From Moraxella sp. (lineage in GTDB: Bacteria; Pseudomonadota; Gammaproteobacteria; Pseudomonadales; Moraxellaceae): 38,548 nt of DNA. The stretch's first letter is position 1. Every line of letters starts with the position of its first letter. Location: contig NZ_JAUNDY010000016.1 in NCBI RefSeq assembly GCF_030525845.1, forward strand, positions 1 to 38,548, read 5' to 3'. The notes under the pieces were generated by a model. The model was not told the origin of the DNA and searched no databases. It saw only the letters and a list, made by a program, of their open reading frames with translations. This document shows, piece by piece, positions 15,610 through 36,018 of the stretch. Both the position numbers and the translations under genes were made by a program.

Positions 15610-16278
15610 TTATTCGTGATTGGACATTTCATTGGCTAATACTTTAAAGTCCAATCTCCCAAACTTGGTTAATTGGGTTTTTATACTTTTAAGAGCTTGC
15701 TCTAAAACTGCCAATCCGTTTGTATCATACACGGTCTGATAAATACTTTGAAAGTCTGGCACATTCGCCCCAATATGATAGTCACACTGCCAAATACCGC
15801 CAAAATTCTGCGGTTGATAAATAATGACTTCTAAGGCATAGCGTTCTTTGTTCTTTTTTAATACATAATGCTCATTGATGGCGATATTAGTCGGCATTGG
15901 CTCATAAGGTTCAAAATCCATTAACTGATTTTTAATAGCACAAGCTTCATCAAAATTCTTTGCCAAAAATACCAACAAAACCGTCTCGCCACTCGGAATG
16001 GGCTTACCAAATCGTTGTAAAGTCGTTTCTGTACCGTCTGCATTTTGGCTTACCACATACAAATCGCCCATTACCGTTTGGTGGGAATTATTCATTTCAT
16101 CAAGCACGCCTTTTAAAATGGGAATGTCGTTGCCATAATCAATTTCTGCCAAAATTTCATCAGGCGTGTTATCGTCATTTCTTAGGGCAGTGTGGCGTGC
16201 TATTTCATTTTTAATGGCACTTTTGGCGATATTGATAAATTTGGGTGGTAGGGCATTTAATAAATATTTTTTGCTCAT
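15610..16278 (-). CDS. Unknown 222-aa protein embedded in the dcw cluster
   Basis: A soluble 222-aa protein starting MSKKYLLNALPPKF. Its ATG overlaps the murE stop (ATGA), so it is translationally coupled to murE. I do not recognise it with confidence. The C-terminal half, with YQPQNFGGIWQCDYHIGA and LAVLEQALKSIKTQL, faintly recalls small DUF6968-like proteins (W-x-C followed by a helix listing 'ALKxI'), but this is weak. It is more AT-rich than murE/murF and is followed by a 122-base gap before murF. It is most easily read as an insertion into the division/wall gene cluster. Confidence 0.65.
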   Translation of the reverse strand: MSKKYLLNALPPKFINIAKSAIKNEIARHTALRNDDNTPDEILAEIDYGNDIPILKGVLDEMNNSHQTVMGDLYVVSQNADGTETTLQRFGKPIPSGETVLLVFLAKNFDEACAIKNQLMDFEPYEPMPTNIAINEHYVLKKNKERYALEVIIYQPQNFGGIWQCDYHIGANVPDFQSIYQTVYDTNGLAVLEQALKSIKTQLTKFGRLDFKVLANEMSNHE

Positions 16279-17840: not shown

Positions 17841-19835
17841 TTACTCTTTTAAATCAAGTGGCTTATCGTAGGGGACGTTATATAGACGCAGACTCTCTTT
17901 CATCACTTTGGCAAAAACAGGAGCGACTGTCTGCCCTGCGTACTTACCCTTTCTAGGGTCTTCCACCAAAATTACCGCCACAAAACGAGGATTGGTCGCA
18001 GGCACAAACCCTGCAAAAACATTGCGATACTGGTCGCTATAATAGCCTCCTGTTGGCTTAGCACGCCGTGAAGTTCCTGTCTTGCCTGCCACATGGTAGC
18101 CATTAATGGCAGCCTCCATGCCAGTACCCCCTTTTTCAGTAACGCTAATCATCATATTGGTGATGTCTTTGGCGTACTTGGGCTGAATGATTTGTTTGGC
18201 TGGCAATACCGACTCGTTTTTTACCAGTCTTAATTGATTCATCATGCCGTCATTGGCAAGGGCGGCATAAGCCTGAGAAATCTGTGCCAACGTTACCGAT
18301 TGTCCGTAGCCATATGACAATGTCGCTCGGCGAGTAACGTCTTTTTCGGTAGGGATATCCACCCTACCCGATGCTTCTGAGGGGAAATTTAAAGCGGTTT
18401 TTTGACCAAAACCAAACTCTCGTTGCATGTTTGCAATGGCATCATATGGTAAACTAAGAGCAATCTTGGCGGAGGCAACGTTGGAGGATTTTTGAATGAG
18501 TTTTCCCATCGTCATGCGTCCATAATTACCGCCATCTCTGATATTATAGCCCCCAATCCTCATTGAGCCGCCACTGGCATCAATTAATGTACGAGTAGAG
18601 TATTTGCCAGATTCTAGGGCGGCCGCCACCGTAAAGGGTTTCATGACCGAGCCAGGCTCAAAAGTATCTAGCACAGGACGGTTACGCTCACTTGCCCCTT
18701 GTCGCTTGGATAAATCATTGGAATTAAAGGAGGGCCATGATGCCATCGCCAGTACATCGCCTGTTTTTGCATCCACAATCATGCCTGAACTAGACCGTGC
18801 AGACTGTACTCGCCCCAATTCTTCTAGACCTTTATATAAAATATATTGCAATCGTGAATCAATGGTCAGATGAATGTCTTTACCCTCTACTTTTGGGGAT
18901 AATTCCTTGATTTCGCCAATTGCACCTTTGACGGCACGCAAGGTTAGTACTTGACCATTTTGCCCTGCCAACACCGAATTGTATTTTAATTCAATACCAG
19001 CACGCCCGCCATATGTCGAAGCCTCATCTTGTGAGTAACCCATATACCCCAAAATCTGTGCCATAGACTCTGGTTGTAGATAATAACGCTTATCGACGCT
19101 TTCCTTGAATACACCTTTAAAATTCAACGCAGTAACGGCATGAGTCGCCTCAGGAGCTACTTTATTTAAAAGCACCAATCGCTTTGAACCTGCCCCATGC
19201 GGCAGAGCATTTTGGACACTCTCTGGGTCATCCAAGTCCACATCAAGTTTAATATTTACTGCTCGCTCTAAGGTTTCACGTGAAACACCGCTGGCATCTG
19301 CCAACTTTGCCAAATCAAGCTCATTTAATTCACGTTCATAAGCCTCACGGCTTGCCTCACTCTTGGCGTTTTTGGCTTTCTTTTTTAGATCATAATATAC
19401 TTGTGCATAGTCATAAGGACTAAAAATCACAGTGGTTAGAGGAGCGTTAGCTGCCAATGGAATGCCATTTGTGTCATAGATGATGCCGCGATGAGCCACG
19501 AGGGGTTTTTTGGCGGTAATGAGCTTATTGCCTTGTGCGATATAATAATCCGATTTGATGACTTGCAACCAATAAGCTCTGGCAAATAACACCACCGCAA
19601 AAAACGCCATAATCGCCCAAATCGCACGATAGCGGTTGATGTCTTGAAGCCCACCCAACAAAGACACGCCAGAGCCTTTTTTGGGTTTGCCTGTATTGGT
19701 CTGGGTAGATTGGCGTTTTACCGCCCCTTCTTTGCTTGTTTTTTTACCCAAACTGCCAATTTTATTGAGTTTTTCTGCAATGTCTTTATTTGAGGCTTTG
19801 TCATTTGGGACTTGGTTTTTGGTTTTGTTATTCAT
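17841..19835 (-). CDS. ftsI: Septal peptidoglycan transpeptidase FtsI (PBP3)
   Basis: FtsI/PBP3 (664 aa) cross-links septal peptidoglycan. Order: a long, basic cytoplasmic N-terminus (about 1-68), one membrane segment (about 70-88), a non-catalytic pedestal domain, and the transpeptidase domain with S396-V-M-K, S450-S-N and K585-T-G. The cytoplasmic tail is longer than the ~20-40 residues common in enterics. The ATG at 19835 has GGGGGG five bases upstream and overlaps the ftsL end by 8 bases; an in-frame GTG four codons earlier is possible. Confidence 0.96.
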   Translation of the reverse strand: MNNKTKNQVPNDKASNKDIAEKLNKIGSLGKKTSKEGAVKRQSTQTNTGKPKKGSGVSLLGGLQDINRYRAIWAIMAFFAVVLFARAYWLQVIKSDYYIAQGNKLITAKKPLVAHRGIIYDTNGIPLAANAPLTTVIFSPYDYAQVYYDLKKKAKNAKSEASREAYERELNELDLAKLADASGVSRETLERAVNIKLDVDLDDPESVQNALPHGAGSKRLVLLNKVAPEATHAVTALNFKGVFKESVDKRYYLQPESMAQILGYMGYSQDEASTYGGRAGIELKYNSVLAGQNGQVLTLRAVKGAIGEIKELSPKVEGKDIHLTIDSRLQYILYKGLEELGRVQSARSSSGMIVDAKTGDVLAMASWPSFNSNDLSKRQGASERNRPVLDTFEPGSVMKPFTVAAALESGKYSTRTLIDASGGSMRIGGYNIRDGGNYGRMTMGKLIQKSSNVASAKIALSLPYDAIANMQREFGFGQKTALNFPSEASGRVDIPTEKDVTRRATLSYGYGQSVTLAQISQAYAALANDGMMNQLRLVKNESVLPAKQIIQPKYAKDITNMMISVTEKGGTGMEAAINGYHVAGKTGTSRRAKPTGGYYSDQYRNVFAGFVPATNPRFVAVILVEDPRKGKYAGQTVAPVFAKVMKESLRLYNVPYDKPLDLKE

Positions 19836-26559: not shown

Positions 26560-26594
26560 AAGCTCTCAATGAAAATTGGGGGCTTGTTTTTATA
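26560..26594 (+). terminator. Terminator of dnaK
   Basis: AAGCTCTCAAT (26560-26570) pairs with ATTGGGGGCTT (26575-26585), with two G-T pairs and a GAAA tetraloop, followed by TGTTTTTAT. The stop codon of the convergent endonuclease gene lies within this T tract. Confidence 0.8.
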
Positions 26595-27699
26595 TTACAC
26601 CATCATCTTTTTGTGCTAATAGATTTCTATGCTCCGCCAAATAACGTTTACGTTCATCATTCAGCAAAACAGCGTCCAATTTAATGTGTTTCCAATATTG
26701 CCAAACATCATCGGATAATCTTTTTGATTTCAACATATTGCCATTATCATCAAAGGAAATATATTTTAAATCAAATAAGCTATCCAAAGTCCGACTTAAT
26801 AACAAGCCATTATTCGGGTCATAGGCTTCATTATCGTTGGACTGAATAAATGGCTTAATATGACTGGCAATCAAAACAGGATAAGATAATTTTTCCAGCA
26901 TACATTTTCTGCCACCATAGTAAAATTCACTTTCTTCAAAAAGTTGATTTTTATATAGACGATGTAAATAAGGATCTCTTTTTTTAGCAAGATAATCATC
27001 TAAATTGCCAAAAATACGCTCGGCATCTTCGGCAAAATACAAATCGTCATTTACTCGTTTCAAGTTGTCTAATTTTGCCAATAAATTCCACAAATAACTA
27101 ATTTGATTGTATTTTCTTTCAATAAAGCCTGATTGAATGCCTTGCTGTAAATAAGTATCCAATTCTGTTTTGCTTAAATGGTCATTGGGATAATTTTCCA
27201 AATCCACTAACATTAAGGCTGCAATTTCGGATTTATTTAATTTACCTTCTGGGTGTTCCACCAAGGTTTTAATCAAAAAGTTCATTTGGCGAATATCAGA
27301 ATGTTCCGTTACCGAACGCCCAAAAGCTGAATGTGTATAAACAATTTTGGATAATAAAGTTTGGCGTTTTTTATTGGTACGAGCATTCACATAATCACGA
27401 GATAAAGGCGTGTAGCCCTCTAAAAATGGCTCAATAAAACCCATTTTTACCAACTGGTTAATGGATTTTCTAACTGATGCCAAATTTTTAGGTTCGCCTG
27501 TTTTTGTGGAAACCATTTCGGGGTGCTGACTTATTAACTCCTGCAAAGTCTTGTACAATTCTGCACTATACTGCAAAGTTGGTTGTTTTTTACATTCATC
27601 AATAAAATTTATGCACAATGTCAAAACAGTAAGAAATTTTGAGCCATTATAATCAGTAAATTCATTGGTTAATTCCCAATAATCTTCATAAATCTGCAT
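26590..27699 (-). CDS. HNH-family restriction endonuclease of the R-M cassette
   Basis: A 369-aa protein whose C-terminal part carries an HNH_2-type nuclease fold: [20 protein letters not shown] (His280), [15 protein letters not shown] (Asn296/297, Asp310) and [10 protein letters not shown]. The N-terminal ~230 residues would hold DNA-recognition elements. It begins directly after the adenine-methylase stop (TAAATG), and being third in an operon with two DNA methylases it is inferred to be the cognate endonuclease. Type IIS enzymes such as HphI also pair a C5- and an N6A-methylase with an HNH nuclease. Specificity cannot be read from sequence alone. Confidence 0.8.
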
Positions 27700-28710
27700 T
27701 TAAACATTCTCCACCAAAAACAAAATTTCCTTGTGATTTTGCTTGTTTTCTTTACCTGTTACCTTATAAATATGGGGTGTTTCTAAAATTTTCACTTTTC
27801 GCCCATTTTCAGAGAGCATTTGTGCCAATTCTTCACGATTAGGGGAAGAAACATTATTGTAGCTCAATAGCCAATATTTAAATGGCTTTAATTTTTCAAT
27901 CAGTGATTGAAATAATGAATTGGCTTGCTTTTTATCCATAAAATGATTAGCAAAGGGTTTGGCAATAGATGATGAAATATAACTGTCTAATAAACCATAA
28001 AAGCCAAAATAATTGTTCATTGTCCCTGTGTAAGGTGGGTCAAGATAAACAGCATCCGCTTTAATTTTTTCCAATAAATCAAATACATCTTCATTATAAG
28101 AAAAATGCGTTTTACCATTATCAAAAACGGCATTATTGTAATCAATCAAATTTTCACGAAAATGAAATTCAAATGATTGATTGTGGTAAGCACGCCTGCG
28201 ACCATATTTGGCATAGCTGTATTCTTCATCACGGAGTTGCTTTACTTTTTCCCAAGGAATAGTAAAACGAGAATAAGGCATTTTTCTAATCATTGCTCGG
28301 CGAATTAGGGCAAAAGCCAGAGCTTTTTTATACGGATTGTCTAATTTTTCAATATTTTGACGATACAAATCCAGTTCCTGACATTCTTGTTCAAAGAAAA
28401 AAACATCAGAATAATGCTCGGTCATAAACCCATTTTTCAGGCTGCCTGAAAAAATCAAATCCACATCGTCATCATTTAAAATTACATCATTGTTTTCAAT
28501 TAAAGCAAGGGCAAGCTGATGATTGATTTGTAAAATGTCATTAGCAATGACAGATAAGCCACGCTTTTTGGCTTCGTATGAAAACGAACAGCCACCACTA
28601 AACACATCAGCAACGGTTTGAACATCGGCAGGTAATTGGTCGCAAATCCAGCCAGCAATTTTTTCTTTATTGCCGATATAATTGATTTTTGGGTATTTTG
28701 GTTTATTCAT
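27700..28710 (-). CDS. D12-class adenine-N6 DNA methyltransferase
   Basis: A 336-aa D12-class (alpha) N6-adenine DNA methyltransferase. Motif order X-I-IV is visible: NYIGNKEKIAGWI at 10-22, the SAM-binding DVFSGGCSF at 35-43 (the family usually has DxFxGGGS; here one Gly is replaced by Cys), and the catalytic DPPYTGTMNNYFG at 224-236. The region between I and IV serves as target recognition. Its ATG overlaps the C5-methylase end by 8 bases. The coding sequence contains a Neisseriaceae-type uptake 12-mer at 28439-28450. Confidence 0.9.
   Translation of the reverse strand: MNKPKYPKINYIGNKEKIAGWICDQLPADVQTVADVFSGGCSFSYEAKKRGLSVIANDILQINHQLALALIENNDVILNDDDVDLIFSGSLKNGFMTEHYSDVFFFEQECQELDLYRQNIEKLDNPYKKALAFALIRRAMIRKMPYSRFTIPWEKVKQLRDEEYSYAKYGRRRAYHNQSFEFHFRENLIDYNNAVFDNGKTHFSYNEDVFDLLEKIKADAVYLDPPYTGTMNNYFGFYGLLDSYISSSIAKPFANHFMDKKQANSLFQSLIEKLKPFKYWLLSYNNVSSPNREELAQMLSENGRKVKILETPHIYKVTGKENKQNHKEILFLVENV
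28439..28450 (+). other. Neisseriaceae-type DNA uptake 12-mer inside the adenine-methylase gene
   Basis: AGGCTGCCTGAA, which I recall as the AG-simDUS dialect of the Neisseriaceae DNA uptake sequence (Simonsiella type), flanked by TTTTTC and AAAAA to form a short palindrome. It lies within codons for SGSLK of the adenine methylase. I found no other exact copy in the window. Confidence 0.6.
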
Positions 28711-29698
28711 TTTCGTTCATTTTTAAAATACATTCGGCAATCGCTTTTGCCAATAACGGGGGGACGGCATTGCCAACTTGTTGTTGCTGGGCGATTTTTT
28801 GCCCACAAAACACAAAATCATCGGGAAAAGATTGTAAACTTGCCAACTCTCGCACAGTCAAAGCACGATTTTGTTCATAATGAAAGACTTTTCGCATATC
28901 ACCTGTAACACACACCGCAGGTTTATCACTATGATAGCGAATGTATTTTCGCACATCACCCGAAGTGGGTCGCAAATTTTCAGGAATGTCACCCCTGTCG
29001 CCACCATTTTTGATAAATGCCATTTTTTCAAGCATTTGTGGTGTATGGTTCATCGCTTCGTGATTGGGAATATTGGGATAATTTTCGCCAGCCAACAATT
29101 TTGGGAAATGCCCAATCGCTTCAAAAACGGTTTTTTGTGGCGTTAGCAATGGTTTTGGAAAAACAATCTTGCCTTGATTTTTTCGTCCAATAAACACCAC
29201 ACGACTGCGATTTTGTGGCACACCAAAATCCACCGCATTCAAAACTTTACATTCCACTTGATAACCAAGATTTTGAAAATGCACCATAATTTCTTGGCGT
29301 GTTTTGCCTGATTGGTGGGTATAAAGTCGTGCCACATTTTCCATTACAAAAAATTTGGGGGCAGTCAATTTAACCACTCGCACAAACTCTTTAAACAAGT
29401 GATTGCGTGGGTCATCAGCAAAAGTTCGCCCAATTTTACCCGCCATAGAAAAGCCCTGACATGGTGGACCACCAATCACAATATCTGCTTTTTGCCCTTT
29501 AAGTTCGGCAAGTAAATCATCATCACTTAACTGGATTAAATCTTTTTGTAAAACAGCATGATGTGGAAAATTATGGCGATAAGTTTCACAGTAGCTAGGC
29601 TCAATCTCCACCGAAAGAATTTGCTTCAAGCCAGCTTGCTCAAAGCCTAAAGATAGTCCGCCCGCTCCTGAAAATAAGTCTATGTAAGTTAGTGGCAT
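28703..29698 (-). CDS. DNA (cytosine-5) methyltransferase
   Basis: A 331-aa C5-cytosine DNA methyltransferase with motifs in order: I YIDLFSGAGGLSLGFEQAG (5-23), IV GGPPCQGFSMAG with catalytic Cys80, VI MENV, VIII PQNRSRVVFIG, a target-recognition region of about 90 residues, IX (ALTVRELASLQSFPDDF) and X QQQVGNAVPPLLAKAIAE. It is the first gene of the cassette; a TATAAT lies about 40 bases upstream without a clear -35. Having methylases of both kinds implies an asymmetric (type IIS-like) target, one enzyme per strand. Confidence 0.94.
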   Translation of the reverse strand: MPLTYIDLFSGAGGLSLGFEQAGLKQILSVEIEPSYCETYRHNFPHHAVLQKDLIQLSDDDLLAELKGQKADIVIGGPPCQGFSMAGKIGRTFADDPRNHLFKEFVRVVKLTAPKFFVMENVARLYTHQSGKTRQEIMVHFQNLGYQVECKVLNAVDFGVPQNRSRVVFIGRKNQGKIVFPKPLLTPQKTVFEAIGHFPKLLAGENYPNIPNHEAMNHTPQMLEKMAFIKNGGDRGDIPENLRPTSGDVRKYIRYHSDKPAVCVTGDMRKVFHYEQNRALTVRELASLQSFPDDFVFCGQKIAQQQQVGNAVPPLLAKAIAECILKMNENE

Positions 29699-30992: not shown

Positions 30993-32174
30993 ATGTTTAA
31001 CCACGTTACCCCCTATGCTGGCGACCCGATTTTGGGTTTGATGGATAAATTTGCTCAGGATACTCGCACCGACATCAAGGTAAACTTGGGCGTGGGCGTT
31101 TATTATACCGAAGATGGCAAATTGCCCGTGCTTGAATGCGTCAAAAAAGCCGAATCCACCATCGCAAACCCCCCAAAACCCCGTGGCTACCTACCGATGG
31201 ACGGCCTAAAAGGCTACCGTGATGCTTGCCAACGCTTGCTATTTGGCGAAACCAAAGCCAATGTCGCCACCATCGCCTCTTTGGGTGGAAGTGGTGCTTT
31301 AAAGGTGGGAGCGGAATTTATCCACGAATGGTTCCCAAATTCGGTGTGCTATGTCTCCGACCCAACTTGGGGTAACCACATCAGTATTTTTGAAGGGGCG
31401 GGAATGAAAGTCGCCAAATACCCCTACTACAACCCTGAAACCATTGGGGTGAAATTTGACGAAATGCTCGCTTTCTTTAACACCCTAAACGAAAACGACA
31501 CCGTACTTTTGCACCCTTGTTGCCACAACCCCACAGGCGTGGATTTGAGCGAAAGTGAGTGGGATAAAGTACTAGAAGTCGTTAAAGAGCGAAAACTTAT
31601 CGCCTTTATGGACATTGCCTATCAAGGCTTTGGCGTGGATATGGACAAGGACGCTTATGCTATTCGCAAGGCTTATGATATGGGCTTGTCGTTCTTTGTG
31701 TCCAATTCATTTTCTAAGAATTTATCGCTTTATGGCGAGCGTGTTGGCGGATTGTCAGTTGTTTGCCCAAGCGAAGCCGAAGCCGATGTGGTGCAAGGTC
31801 AGCTAAAATTCACCGTTCGCCGCATCTATTCAAGCCCACCAGCACACGGCAACAGCGTGGTGGACATCGTAATGAACAGCGATGACCTGTACAATCAATG
31901 GGTGGGCGAAGTGTACGAGATGCGAGACCGCATTGCCGATATGCGTGAAAAGCTCCAAAAAGCCCTTGAAGAGCGATTGCCAAGCCGTGATTTTAGCTAC
32001 TTTACCAAACAAAAAGGAATGTTTAGCTTTACAGGCTTGACCGCCCCACAAGTCGTGCGTTTGCGTGATGAATTTGCCGTGTATATGGTGGAAAATGGGC
32101 GTATGTGTGTCGCTGGTCTAAATAACAAAAATGTGGACTATGTGGCAAATGCGATTGCCGAAGTGTTGAAATAA
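30993..32174 (+). CDS. tyrB: Aromatic/aspartate aminotransferase (class I, PLP)
   Basis: A 393-aa class I aminotransferase of the AspC/TyrB group, which transfers amino groups between aspartate or aromatic amino acids and 2-oxoglutarate. It begins MFNHVTPYAGDPILGLMDKF; the PLP-binding lysine is K242 in SNSFSKNLSLYGERVG, with HPCCHNPTGVDL and the C-terminal Arg region ENGRMCVAGLN also present. Sequence alone does not separate AspC from TyrB; the symbol is provisional. ATG at 30993 has AAAGGTG upstream; a strong terminator follows. Confidence 0.9.
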   Translation: MFNHVTPYAGDPILGLMDKFAQDTRTDIKVNLGVGVYYTEDGKLPVLECVKKAESTIANPPKPRGYLPMDGLKGYRDACQRLLFGETKANVATIASLGGSGALKVGAEFIHEWFPNSVCYVSDPTWGNHISIFEGAGMKVAKYPYYNPETIGVKFDEMLAFFNTLNENDTVLLHPCCHNPTGVDLSESEWDKVLEVVKERKLIAFMDIAYQGFGVDMDKDAYAIRKAYDMGLSFFVSNSFSKNLSLYGERVGGLSVVCPSEAEADVVQGQLKFTVRRIYSSPPAHGNSVVDIVMNSDDLYNQWVGEVYEMRDRIADMREKLQKALEERLPSRDFSYFTKQKGMFSFTGLTAPQVVRLRDEFAVYMVENGRMCVAGLNNKNVDYVANAIAEVLK

Positions 32175-32222: not shown

Positions 32223-32566
32223 CAGTACGCAATTAAAAAACCGCGAGTGAGACACATCATCAAGTTTACAACCATATAGATTAAAATTTGGCAGGCCTCA
32301 CAACAACCCAAATGACAGCATAGAACAAACCAAAGACTATTTTGAAAGACGCTTGTCTACCCAAAAATGAGGTGTATTATTTGATTGCCAAAAGAGTGAA
32401 CAAACTTATGTGATGAATAGCAATTTGACAAGACTTAATTGGCAAAAATTGGATTATACCAATCAAGCCTTAACTCTAATTTGCCAAAATCACAACCAAA
32501 AAACACGCCCAACTGAGCGTGTTTTAAAGATGAATAACAAGATGAATTTTACCAAAACAGCCAACC
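32223..32566. other. Gene-poor stretch between the aminotransferase and a small gene
   Basis: About 340 bases with no recognisable gene. Short open frames on the plus strand lack ribosome-binding sites and familiar content. The only clear element is the minus-strand terminator at 32496-32525. The region may be a decayed remnant, but no similarity could be recognised. Confidence 0.5.
32496..32525 (-). terminator. Terminator of the small 70-aa gene
   Basis: AAAACACGC (32500-32508) and GCGTGTTTT (32517-32525) form a perfect 9-bp stem with an 8-base loop; on the minus strand it is followed by a run of six T. It implies that the small gene at 32567 is really transcribed. Confidence 0.85.
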
Positions 32567-32779
32567 CTACTTTAAATCATCAAGCTCTGGGAACGCTGAA
32601 TTTATCTCCTCTAAGATCTCCATCTGAATTTTACCAATCAAGACACCGACACCACGCTTAAATTTCTCTTGTATTTCTGGCGAACAGTCGCCAAACTCTG
32701 ACAGATACAAAACAGAGGTTAAATGCTCCACCGCTTGCAGAGCATGTTGCTTGGTGTGTATCGCAAATTCTTTATTCAT
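32567..32779 (-). CDS. Unknown 70-aa helical protein
   Basis: A small acidic, mostly helical cytosolic protein (MNKEFAIHTKQHALQAVEHL, then a central cysteine in FGDCSPEIQEKFKRG, ending AFPELDDLK). I do not recognise the family. Support for a real gene: AGGGG seven bases before the ATG and a strong intrinsic terminator 40 bases past the stop. It lies 59 bases downstream of the frameshifted secreted-peptide gene in the same direction, with no promoter recognised between, so it probably shares the iron-responsive promoter at 33113-33141. Confidence 0.65.
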   Translation of the reverse strand: MNKEFAIHTKQHALQAVEHLTSVLYLSEFGDCSPEIQEKFKRGVGVLIGKIQMEILEEINSAFPELDDLK

Positions 32780-32838
32780 AATGTACCCCTACATTCACGA
32801 AAACATCTTCTAAAATCACTAGACTGCAAATCCTGAGG

Positions 32839-33053
32839 TCAAGTCCATAAAAAATGTGAACACATGATATAACACTCCTCATCGCTTGAAATATTCGTTC
32901 TAAGTGATTTTTTTAGCAAACTAGGCTTACCACTCACAGCTTGGTTGGCAACATCTACTTTTATTTGATGATTTGACGCATTATTTGCAAAAGCACTACT
33001 TGTCATCATCACAAATACCACAGCCAAAATGGATGCTTTTATGTTTTTTTCAT
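32839..33053 (-). pseudogene. Small secreted-peptide gene frameshifted at a run of seven A
   Basis: ATG at 33053 has an excellent AGGAG site, but the frame ATG-AAA-AAA-ACA-TAA stops after four codons. With one more A in the seven-A run (plus-strand T at 33044-33050) the frame would give a 71-aa preprotein with a textbook signal peptide (MKKNIKASILAVVFVMMTSS then AFA, cleavage before NNAS) and a mature peptide of about 48 residues rich in Ser/Asn/Lys with two cysteines near the end (EECYIMCSHFLWT). It is either broken, slippage-controlled (phase variation or transcriptional slippage) or a sequencing error. No family was recognised. Confidence 0.7.
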
Positions 33054-33099
33054 AGATAACTCCTAGATTACGGATTTAAATAAAATTGATATTAAAAAC

Positions 33100-33141
33100 A
33101 ATATCGATAATCATTATATTTTATAAAATTTTGACTGTCAA
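33100..33141 (-). promoter_or_regulatory. Perfect sigma-70 promoter with overlapping Fur-box-like site
   Basis: On the minus strand TTGACA (33141-33136) and TATAAT (33118-33113) are both exact consensus with a 17-base spacer. AATATCGATAATCATTATA at 33100-33118 (plus strand) matches 15 of 19 positions of the Fur consensus GATAATGATAATCATTATC and covers the -10 box and start site, the classic geometry for iron-dependent repression. It drives the secreted-peptide gene and probably the 70-aa gene. Confidence 0.75.
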
Positions 33142-33142
33142 T

Positions 33143-33172
33143 AAAAAACCTGATCTTTTCATCAGGTTTTTA
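33143..33172 (-). terminator. Terminator of proA, abutting the Fur-type promoter
   Basis: AAAAACCTGAT and ATCAGGTTTTT form an 11-bp stem with a 6-base loop (33144-33171). Its minus-strand T run leads directly into the TTGACA box, so the peptide promoter is insulated from proA read-through. Confidence 0.88.
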
Positions 33173-33181
33173 CGTTTAAGC

Positions 33182-34459
33182 TCAACTTCGCACTTCCCCA
33201 TGCCCAAACACCACCCATTTTTGGGAAGTCAAGCCATGCAAGCCCACAGGTCCCCGAGCGTGGATTTTGTCGGTAGAAATGCCAATCTCCGCTCCCAGCC
33301 CATATTCAAAGCCATCAGCAAAACGACTAGACGCATTAACCATCACCGAGCTAGAATCCACTTCACGGATAAATCGCTGACTGTGTTCATAACTATTTGT
33401 GATAATCACATCGGTATGGTGCGAGCCATAGTGATTGATGTGGCTAATGGCATGGTCAAGGTCGTCAACCACTTTGACCGCCAGCATGGGAGCAAGATAT
33501 TCGGTGTACCAGTCGTCCTCTGTTGCCGTTTCTAGGTTTAGCCCATGACCGTCTAGAAGCTTGTGGGAAATTTCACACACCCTAAATATCATGGTATTGT
33601 CCACATCATGCATGGCTTTGGCGATTTGTGGTAAGGCAACTTTGGCAATATCAGCATGAACCAGCAAGGTTTCCATGACATTGCAAGGCGAGTAGCGAGA
33701 AGTCTTGGCATTGACGCACACTTTTACCGCCATTTCTACATCAGCAAAACTGTCCACAAAGGTATGACAATTACCGTCCAAATGCTTAATCACAGGCACA
33801 CGAGCATTACTCGCAATCCGTTCAATCAGCCCACGCCCCCCACGAGGAATGATCACATCGACCACGCCCACCATCGTGATGAGCTTATCCACCGCATTAC
33901 GGTCGGTGGTGGCAAGCACTTGCACGCCATCGGTAGGTAAACCCGCCTGCTCCAAGCCCAAATGCACGCACTTGGCAAGGGCTTGGTTAGAATAAAACGC
34001 CTCCGACCCCCCACGCAAAATAATGGCATTGCCCGACTTAATCGCAAGACTCCCCGCCTCTATCGTAACATTGGGACGACTTTCATAAATCATGCCAACC
34101 ACCCCAAGTGGCACTCGCATTTTACCAAGCTGGATACCGCTTGGGCGATAAGTCAGCTCGCTTACCTCGCCAATGGGGTCGGGCAGACCAATCACATCAT
34201 CAAGCGAGCTTAAAATGCCATTAAACACTTTTTCGCTAATCACAAGGCGGTCAAGCAAAGCAGGCTCTAAGCCTTTATCCTTGCCGTTTTGGACATCTTG
34301 GGCATTGGCGGATAAAATCTCATCTTTGTGGGCGATGATTTGGTTTTTGATACAAGTTAGGGCGTGATTTTTGGTTTTGGTGTCGGCACGAGCAAGTAAG
34401 GCGGCGGCGGTTTTGGCTTTTTGCCCCACTTCACTCATGTAGGTGGCTAAATCAGTCAT
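33182..34459 (-). CDS. proA: Gamma-glutamyl phosphate reductase ProA
   Basis: ProA (425 aa) reduces gamma-glutamyl phosphate to glutamate semialdehyde with NADPH, the second step of proline synthesis. Signatures: [48 protein letters not shown] and the catalytic cysteine C259 in [12 protein letters not shown]. Around the cysteine this protein has SRYSPCN rather than the more common QRxGVCN. proB is not adjacent. It follows the response-regulator gene by 92 bases. Confidence 0.95.
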
Positions 34460-35316: not shown

Positions 35317-35895
35317 TCACGCTGTTACACCATATACCTGACGAATGACACGTTTAAAATAAGCAAACGCATCATCTGCCCCTTTCATAGCAGCCACCCT
35401 ACCCTCATCAGAAATGGGTAAGGCATCAATCTTGGCCTTCACAGCACGCCAATGAGGCATGCGACCGTCTGGGTGTGCCGCCAAATGAGAGGCACCAAAA
35501 TCATCTTTTAAATCAATTTTACCTGCTTCTTGATACAAAATCGCCGCACCGACATTCGACCCTTCGACACAGTACAGCCAACCGATCGCCTCATCATCTG
35601 TAAACACTGGTCGCTCCATATCGCCCTCGTAGGGTGCTACCTGCAAATCCTGCATGTCAGATTTGACACGTTCGAAGCGAGACAGCTGTGTCAACCCCTC
35701 AATACCACCAGCGATTTTTTCATTAGAATAAATCGGCTGAACCGTACGATGAAATTCATACTGTGCCTGCAAGAATTTACGATAATTATCATGACTGGCA
35801 AATGGCTGCATGCTCATGACCAGCTTATCCACCGCATCATGTGTGGTACGTGAATGAGCTTTTAGAGCTTCTGTCAAGGTTGGTTGCTGTGTCAT
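35317..35895 (-). CDS. hemO: Haem oxygenase (biliverdin-producing, HemO/PigA-like)
   Basis: A 192-aa haem oxygenase that opens haem to biliverdin, CO and iron, releasing iron from host haem. The proximal histidine is in SRTTHDAVDKL; the distal helix region shows LYCVEGSNVGAAILYQEAGK, matching the bacterial HemO pattern yVxEGSxLGaa. ATG at 35895 has TAGGAG upstream; a longer in-frame reading is rejected. The CTAGGAGTT context resembles that of the secreted-peptide gene (33053). The AT-rich upstream region contains AATCATTAT, a partial Fur-like half site. Confidence 0.9.
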   Translation of the reverse strand: MTQQPTLTEALKAHSRTTHDAVDKLVMSMQPFASHDNYRKFLQAQYEFHRTVQPIYSNEKIAGGIEGLTQLSRFERVKSDMQDLQVAPYEGDMERPVFTDDEAIGWLYCVEGSNVGAAILYQEAGKIDLKDDFGASHLAAHPDGRMPHWRAVKAKIDALPISDEGRVAAMKGADDAFAYFKRVIRQVYGVTA

Positions 35896-36018
35896 ATAAA
35901 CTCCTAGTATCCAAATAGTGATAAGATAACTCAACTTTTATCTTTTGTAAATAATAAATAATGATTTTTATTTATAAAATAATTTCTTTTTTATTAACTT
36001 TATGATATTCTTATCATC

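What the first reader, a model, noticed from the sequence alone, without database searches (positions are those of the whole stretch)
32839..33053. Small secreted-peptide gene whose frame depends on a seven-A run
The start codon with a strong AGGAG site is directly followed by seven A and stops after four codons; adding one A restores a 71-aa preprotein with an ideal signal peptide and a ~48-residue Cys-containing mature peptide. The gene has a perfect promoter and iron-type operator, so it does not look like long-dead DNA. It may be an on/off (phase-variable or slippage-expressed) exported peptide of unknown function, conceivably a bacteriocin-like or iron-scavenging factor.
Basis: partly seen in the sequence, partly recalled or inferred. 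Interest (0 to 1): 0.72.

Follow-up and report, generated by a model that had tools for sequence, protein, structure and literature searches.

The report
Exported-peptide gene broken at A-tract
A small, apparently iron-regulated gene for an exported peptide found in no other genome searched is cut off after four codons at a run of A's; most likely it is switched off or decaying, which is a known kind of event.

Summary
On the minus strand AGGAG and ATG (33053) are followed by seven A and a stop after four codons; a signal-peptide frame (62 codons, 33027-32839) lies one frame away. The promoter is a perfect TTGACA-17-TATAAT with a Fur-like site (15/19) on its -10 box. The peptide is an orphan: 1 of 348 family genomes has it, our own. 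The 70-aa protein gene downstream is real: one relative (G005) has it at the same place behind proA, dN/dS about 0.14, but without the peptide. A second exported-protein gene of this genome (L136) is broken in the same way while its G008 orthologue is in frame, so such breaks do occur in this assembly (2 of 25 starts of this type, 0 of 73 in three relatives; p 0.06). Best reading: a genuine, lineage-restricted exported-peptide gene that is off here. Reversible switching is possible but unshown: no same-species strain or reads could be examined. An in-frame stretch with a second CxxxC behind the peptide's stop hints at a second lesion, i.e. decay. Programmed slippage and a bacteriocin function have no support beyond layout.

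The parts
33113..33141 (-). Perfect sigma-70-type promoter TTGACA-17-TATAAT
   Evidence: 12 of 12 matches
33100..33118 (.). Fur-like operator overlapping the -10 box
   Evidence: 15 of 19 to the recalled 19-base consensus, best on the plus strand of the window; only tied with four other sites under the 7-1-7 form
33060..33064 (-). Shine-Dalgarno AGGAG, 6 bases before ATG
33039..33053 (-). Start codon and four-codon ORF ending in TAA
33044..33050 (-). Run of seven A directly behind ATG
32839..33027 (-). Out-of-frame peptide stretch: rest of signal peptide and 48-residue mature part with CxxxC, ends in TGA
32779..32838 (-). Twenty more open codons in the same frame behind that TGA, with a second CxxxC; its next stop overlaps the ATG of the 70-aa gene. 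Possible lost C-terminus
   Evidence: a 57-base tail is open with CxxxC in 25 of 5000 shuffles
32567..32779 (-). 70-aa cytosolic protein, predicted two-helix hairpin, conserved in G005 at the same locus; own ribosome site inferred by eye
32500..32525 (-). Terminator-like hairpin closing the two-gene unit
33144..33171 (-). Inverted repeat (11-bp arms) behind proA, likely its terminator (not called by the terminator scan), just upstream of the promoter
33182..34459 (-). proA-like gene (glutamate-5-semialdehyde dehydrogenase; name recalled), syntenic anchor

Best explanation
This is a genuine but lineage-restricted gene for a small exported peptide, the first gene of a compact two-gene unit with an iron-type promoter (33141 to about 32500, minus strand). 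In this genome its reading frame is broken at the run of A directly behind the start codon, so ribosomes stop after four codons and no exported peptide is made; the 70-aa protein behind it seems to have its own ribosome site and is probably still made. The break most likely arose by ordinary length mutation of the A-tract, the same event that hit a second exported-protein gene here (L136). Whether it is reversible is open. I lean to plain inactivation or decay, because the tract is short and the frame may carry a second lesion (the in-frame TGA before a second CxxxC). Shown: the DNA anatomy, the second case, conservation of the 70-aa gene. Inferred: transcription, Fur control, the mutational origin, loss of the peptide.
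For: Start, tract and stop; promoter, Fur-like site; signal-peptide pattern in 2 of 5000 shuffles. Second gene broken at its ATG-A tract, orthologue in G008 (60% identity) in frame from the same start site. 28 of 30 window ORFs scanned match a Pfam model at E 0.001 (one of these, 15610-16278, below the curated cut-off) and none looks split; 10 of 17 A/T runs of seven lie inside genes taken as intact, so base-calling at such runs is good here. Extra open stretch with CxxxC ending on the next start codon. Passages of PMC2831843 argue that A/T tracts near gene starts serve reversible inactivation.
Against: No intact relative of the peptide was found to prove the frame: 0 of 347 other family genomes. 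Codon bias is weak, and negative in the 20-codon tail. The Fur-like site is not unique under a second consensus form. Raw reads were not available, so an assembly error is not excluded. The excess of broken starts over relatives is not significant: 2 of 25 against 0 of 73, p 0.063.
Confidence: 0.55

Rival explanations
1. Phase variation: the A-tract gains and loses bases at high frequency, the isolate sequenced is an OFF cell, and switching is selected for an iron-regulated exported peptide.
For: Tract exactly at the start, exported product, intact promoter; second exported gene in the same state (78, 81, 83-85); A/T tracts near gene starts proposed as a general switch (PMC2831843, passages).
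Against: Only seven A; the second gene has six. Seventeen A/T runs of exactly seven in this window alone, this one included. No strain or read comparison. Of the census starts with A7 or more, all 9 in three relatives and the other 3 here have ORFs of 56 codons or more.
Confidence: 0.2
2. Sequencing or assembly error in a homopolymer; the gene is intact in the organism.
For: Draft assembly of 44 contigs, 93.65% complete; both broken starts sit at A-runs (78).
Against: No split gene seen among 28 Pfam-matched ORFs of the window; 10 A/T runs of seven inside genes taken as intact; 3 other A7 starts of this genome in frame.
Confidence: 0.15
3. Expression by slippage: RNA polymerase or ribosome slips on the A-run, so a fraction of product is made.
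For: A-runs are slippery; passages of PMC3711429 list A-heptamers for ribosomal frameshifting and one dnaX type with runs of 7 to 10 A.
Against: The same paper gives n above 7 for polymerase slippage; the site is at codons 2-4; no significant structure (z -1.17); no homologue to test conservation.
Confidence: 0.05
4. Not a gene: a chance signal-peptide-like frame behind the leader of the 70-aa gene, whose four-codon ORF is part of a leader.
For: Orphan, weak codon bias; open frame length alone common in shuffles; G005 has the 70-aa gene without the peptide.
Against: Signal-peptide pattern 2 of 5000 shuffles and its exact placement behind ideal start signals; of 27 such starts in this genome, 23 carry ORFs of 30 or more codons, 21 of these with a hydrophobic N-terminus.
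Confidence: 0.05

Closest known systems
Poly(A)/poly(T) tracts near the 5' end of coding genes (reversible inactivation; PMC2831843, passages seen)
   Same: A-run at the very start of an exported-protein gene, frame broken there
   Different: Tract of only seven; no population data
Poly-A phase variation of p78 in Mycoplasma fermentans (named in a passage of PMC3711429)
   Same: Homopolymer A in a gene said to switch by replication slippage
   Different: Switching reported there, not shown here; tract length there not checked by me
Two-gene bacteriocin and immunity units (recalled)
   Same: Small exported peptide followed by a small cytosolic helical protein in a likely operon
   Different: No family hit, no dedicated exporter or processing gene in the unit; the 70-aa gene occurs without the peptide in G005

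Membership tests
Phase-variable contingency gene | Repeat tract at the point where the frame is broken | tested here: met
Phase-variable contingency gene | Tract length varies between cells or strains | not testable with these tools
   one genome per species, no reads
Phase-variable contingency gene | Tract longer than background | tested here: not met
   17 A/T runs of exactly seven in the window including this one, 10 inside genes taken as intact; 2 runs of eight
Programmed frameshift gene | Conserved slippery site with stimulator | tested here: not met
   no homologue; no significant structure
Bacteriocin with immunity gene | Similarity to known precursors or immunity proteins | tested here: not met
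   no Pfam, NCBIfam or PHROGs match; no PDB sequence match to the peptide (37), and only a coiled coil at E 0.65 for the 70-aa protein (38)
Bacteriocin with immunity gene | Killing activity | not testable with these tools
   needs bench work
Fur-regulated gene | Fur-like site on the promoter | tested here: met
   15 of 19, best on the plus strand of the window; none at 16 of 19; tied with four other sites under the 7-1-7 form
Fur-regulated gene | Iron-dependent expression | not testable with these tools
   no expression data
Pseudogene | Disrupted frame with an intact relative | tested here: inconclusive
   disrupted; no intact relative of this gene found, though the second broken gene has one

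The most novel reading that the evidence does not exclude
An iron-starvation two-gene unit makes a new type of small disulfide-hairpin (CxxxC-18-CxxxC) exported peptide and a cytosolic two-helix partner, possibly an antagonist and its immunity protein, with output gated by the A-tract at the start and by the in-frame TGA.
Probability: 0.07. Interest if true: 0.65.

Novelty: new member of a known kind. Interest (0 to 1): 0.3.

Why it matters
If the tract switches, it adds an iron-regulated orphan exported peptide to the contingency genes of a Moraxella-like genus, and with the second gene (L136) it suggests that signal-peptide starts with A-runs are a class worth surveying in strains. If not, it is a clean case of a lineage-specific small gene caught during inactivation while its partner gene remains.

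Tried and rejected
Homology searches of the 62-residue stretch: Pfam, NCBIfam, PHROGs, PADLOC, plasmids, phages, viral contigs, genome contigs, 348 family genomes: nothing but self and chance-level matches. The contig and plasmid/phage collections may leave out records close to this genome, as their answers say. With the 20-residue tail (TGA read as X): PDB none; in 348 family genomes 74 have a match at E up to 1, all but self at most 19.2 bits. I opened six of these or the places: L121, the top one and repeated in several genomes of one genus, lies out of frame inside a 493-codon gene; L013 and L127, L014, L131 and L132 (45, 46) I judged chance; the rest were not opened. L003 and L004 are 37- and 71-base promoter-region matches, not homologues. 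The downstream 70-aa protein: no family match, no plasmid, phage or viral relative, a single-sequence model of pLDDT 87.8, best PDB fold match E 1.3. A fold of the 62-residue stretch was useless (pLDDT 51.9). Rfam: five hits, all below gathering score. A possible remnant of the peptide upstream of the G005 70-aa gene (a CYCIM stretch) could not be told from chance. UGA as selenocysteine was considered; tRNA-Sec was not searched for. Organism name: the 80 genome-contig loci kept held no record titled Moraxella; the genus is inferred from Psychrobacter and Acinetobacter as nearest named hits and from recall.

Full report
What is there. The window is contig 20 of a 1.89-Mb draft genome of 44 contigs. 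On the minus strand, between a proA-like gene (34459-33182) and an aminotransferase-like gene on the plus strand (30993-32174; name recalled), lies a compact unit. It has an inverted repeat behind proA (the terminator scan did not call it), a perfect promoter at 33141-33113, a Fur-like site on its -10 box (15 of 19, best on the plus strand of the window; tied with four others under the 7-1-7 form), AGGAG and ATG at 33053, seven A and TAA after four codons. Behind that come a signal-peptide frame open from 33027 to the TGA at 32839, the 70-aa gene 32779-32567, and a terminator-like hairpin 32525-32500.

Is it more than chance. Openness alone is weak evidence (200 of 2000 shuffles) and codon bias is weak (the control genes were also in the training set). 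The signal-peptide pattern with an open rest is strong (2 of 5000 shuffles), and it sits exactly behind ideal start signals. Starts of the form AGGA-N5..9-ATG-A6 are mostly genuine in this genome: 27 sites against 1 for the reversed control pattern, 23 of them with ORFs of 30 or more codons, 21 of these with a hydrophobic N-terminus.

Conservation. The peptide is found in 1 of 348 family genomes, our own; the only other matches at E 0.05 are three of 16 to 18.4 bits that contain stops. The 70-aa protein has one strong relative, G005 (66% identity over 70 residues); the other 5 of 7 matching genomes out of 348 score 16.3 to 18.4 bits. In G005 it also lies directly behind proA. Between the two, dS is 1.72 and dN 0.24, so it is a selected gene. 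G005 lacks the peptide: none of its three frames over the gap between proA and the 70-aa gene holds a signal-peptide frame. Conservation with the window starts only about 27 bases before the 70-aa start. G012 and G011 have a lipoprotein-like gene directly behind proA, and G005 has it behind the 70-aa gene.

A second case. A census of the same start pattern was read in this genome (27 of 27 sites) and in three relatives (80 sites; 78 distinct start contexts, the others repeats). Besides our locus, one gene of this genome (L136, behind a hemB-like gene; name recalled) has ATG, six A and a stop after three codons, with a signal peptide and 160 open codons one frame away; two further short sites (L137, L143) look like chance. 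An upstream ATG in that frame also exists (168 codons), but it lies inside the last codons of the hemB-like gene. Its G008 orthologue (60% identity) is in frame from the same start site. In the relatives none of the 78 is broken at the tract with a signal peptide beginning there in another frame. Five are short: three look like chance or misplaced starts (L169, L176, L218), one is broken further on with an intact orthologue in G005 (L171 and L184), one is truncated (L212). Counting starts that are broken at the tract or carry 30 or more codons, 2 of 25 here stand against 0 of 73, p 0.063 (one search printed 0.057 with totals of 24 and 75 that I had estimated). This supports the frame reading and shows that breaks at such tracts occur in this assembly; it does not separate mutation from error, nor switching from decay.

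Error or real. Of 30 window ORFs scanned, 28 match a Pfam model at E 0.001 (one below its curated cut-off) and none looks split. Ten of 17 A/T runs of seven lie inside 31 genes I took as intact, 3 of which were not in the Pfam scan. Pervasive homopolymer error is therefore unlikely; a single error remains possible.

A possible second lesion. Reading on past the TGA, the same frame stays open for 20 codons, contains a second CxxxC, and ends in a stop that overlaps the start of the 70-aa gene. A 57-base tail that is open and holds CxxxC occurs in 25 of 5000 shuffles; the motif was chosen after seeing it, and codon bias in this tail is negative. If the gene once ran that far, it carries two lesions and is decaying rather than switching.

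Mechanism and verdict. Best reading, 0.55: a real lineage-restricted exported-peptide gene that is off in this genome through a break at its A-tract, while its partner gene persists. Phase variation 0.2, assembly error 0.15, slippage 0.05, no gene 0.05. The function of the peptide is unknown; the layout recalls a secreted peptide with a cytosolic partner, but no library or fold search supports a bacteriocin.

Literature. I saw search listings and passages of PMC2831843 and PMC3711429, nothing more. The searches listed no paper that I recognised as describing this locus; no claim is made beyond them.

Noticed in passing
L136 1025-1531 (G000 contig 35, about 18150-18660): Second exported-protein gene whose start (ATG, six A) stops after three codons; orthologue in G008 (L241) is in frame from the same start site. 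An upstream ATG in the same frame lies inside the end of the preceding gene.
   Followed up: partly
window 32779-32838: Open continuation of the peptide frame past its TGA with a second CxxxC, ending on the start codon of the 70-aa gene.
   Followed up: partly
window 26590-29698: Type II restriction-modification cluster: HNH nuclease, D12 adenine and C5 cytosine methyltransferases.
   Followed up: no
G008 contig 15, 19449-29917; G005 contig 6, 693476-703670: Arrays of many short exported-protein genes with very similar start regions (AGGA..ATGAAAAAA), several looking like paralogues.
   Followed up: no
L171 (G012) and L184 (G005): An exported-protein gene broken inside the signal peptide in G012 but intact in G005.
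   Followed up: no
L002 1877-2584 (G005), also behind proA in G012 and G011: Lipoprotein-like gene with repeated GATAAT-type sequence in front (possible Fur sites), at the place where the window has the peptide unit.
   Followed up: no
window 35317-35934: Heme oxygenase family gene close to the iron-type promoter.
   Followed up: no
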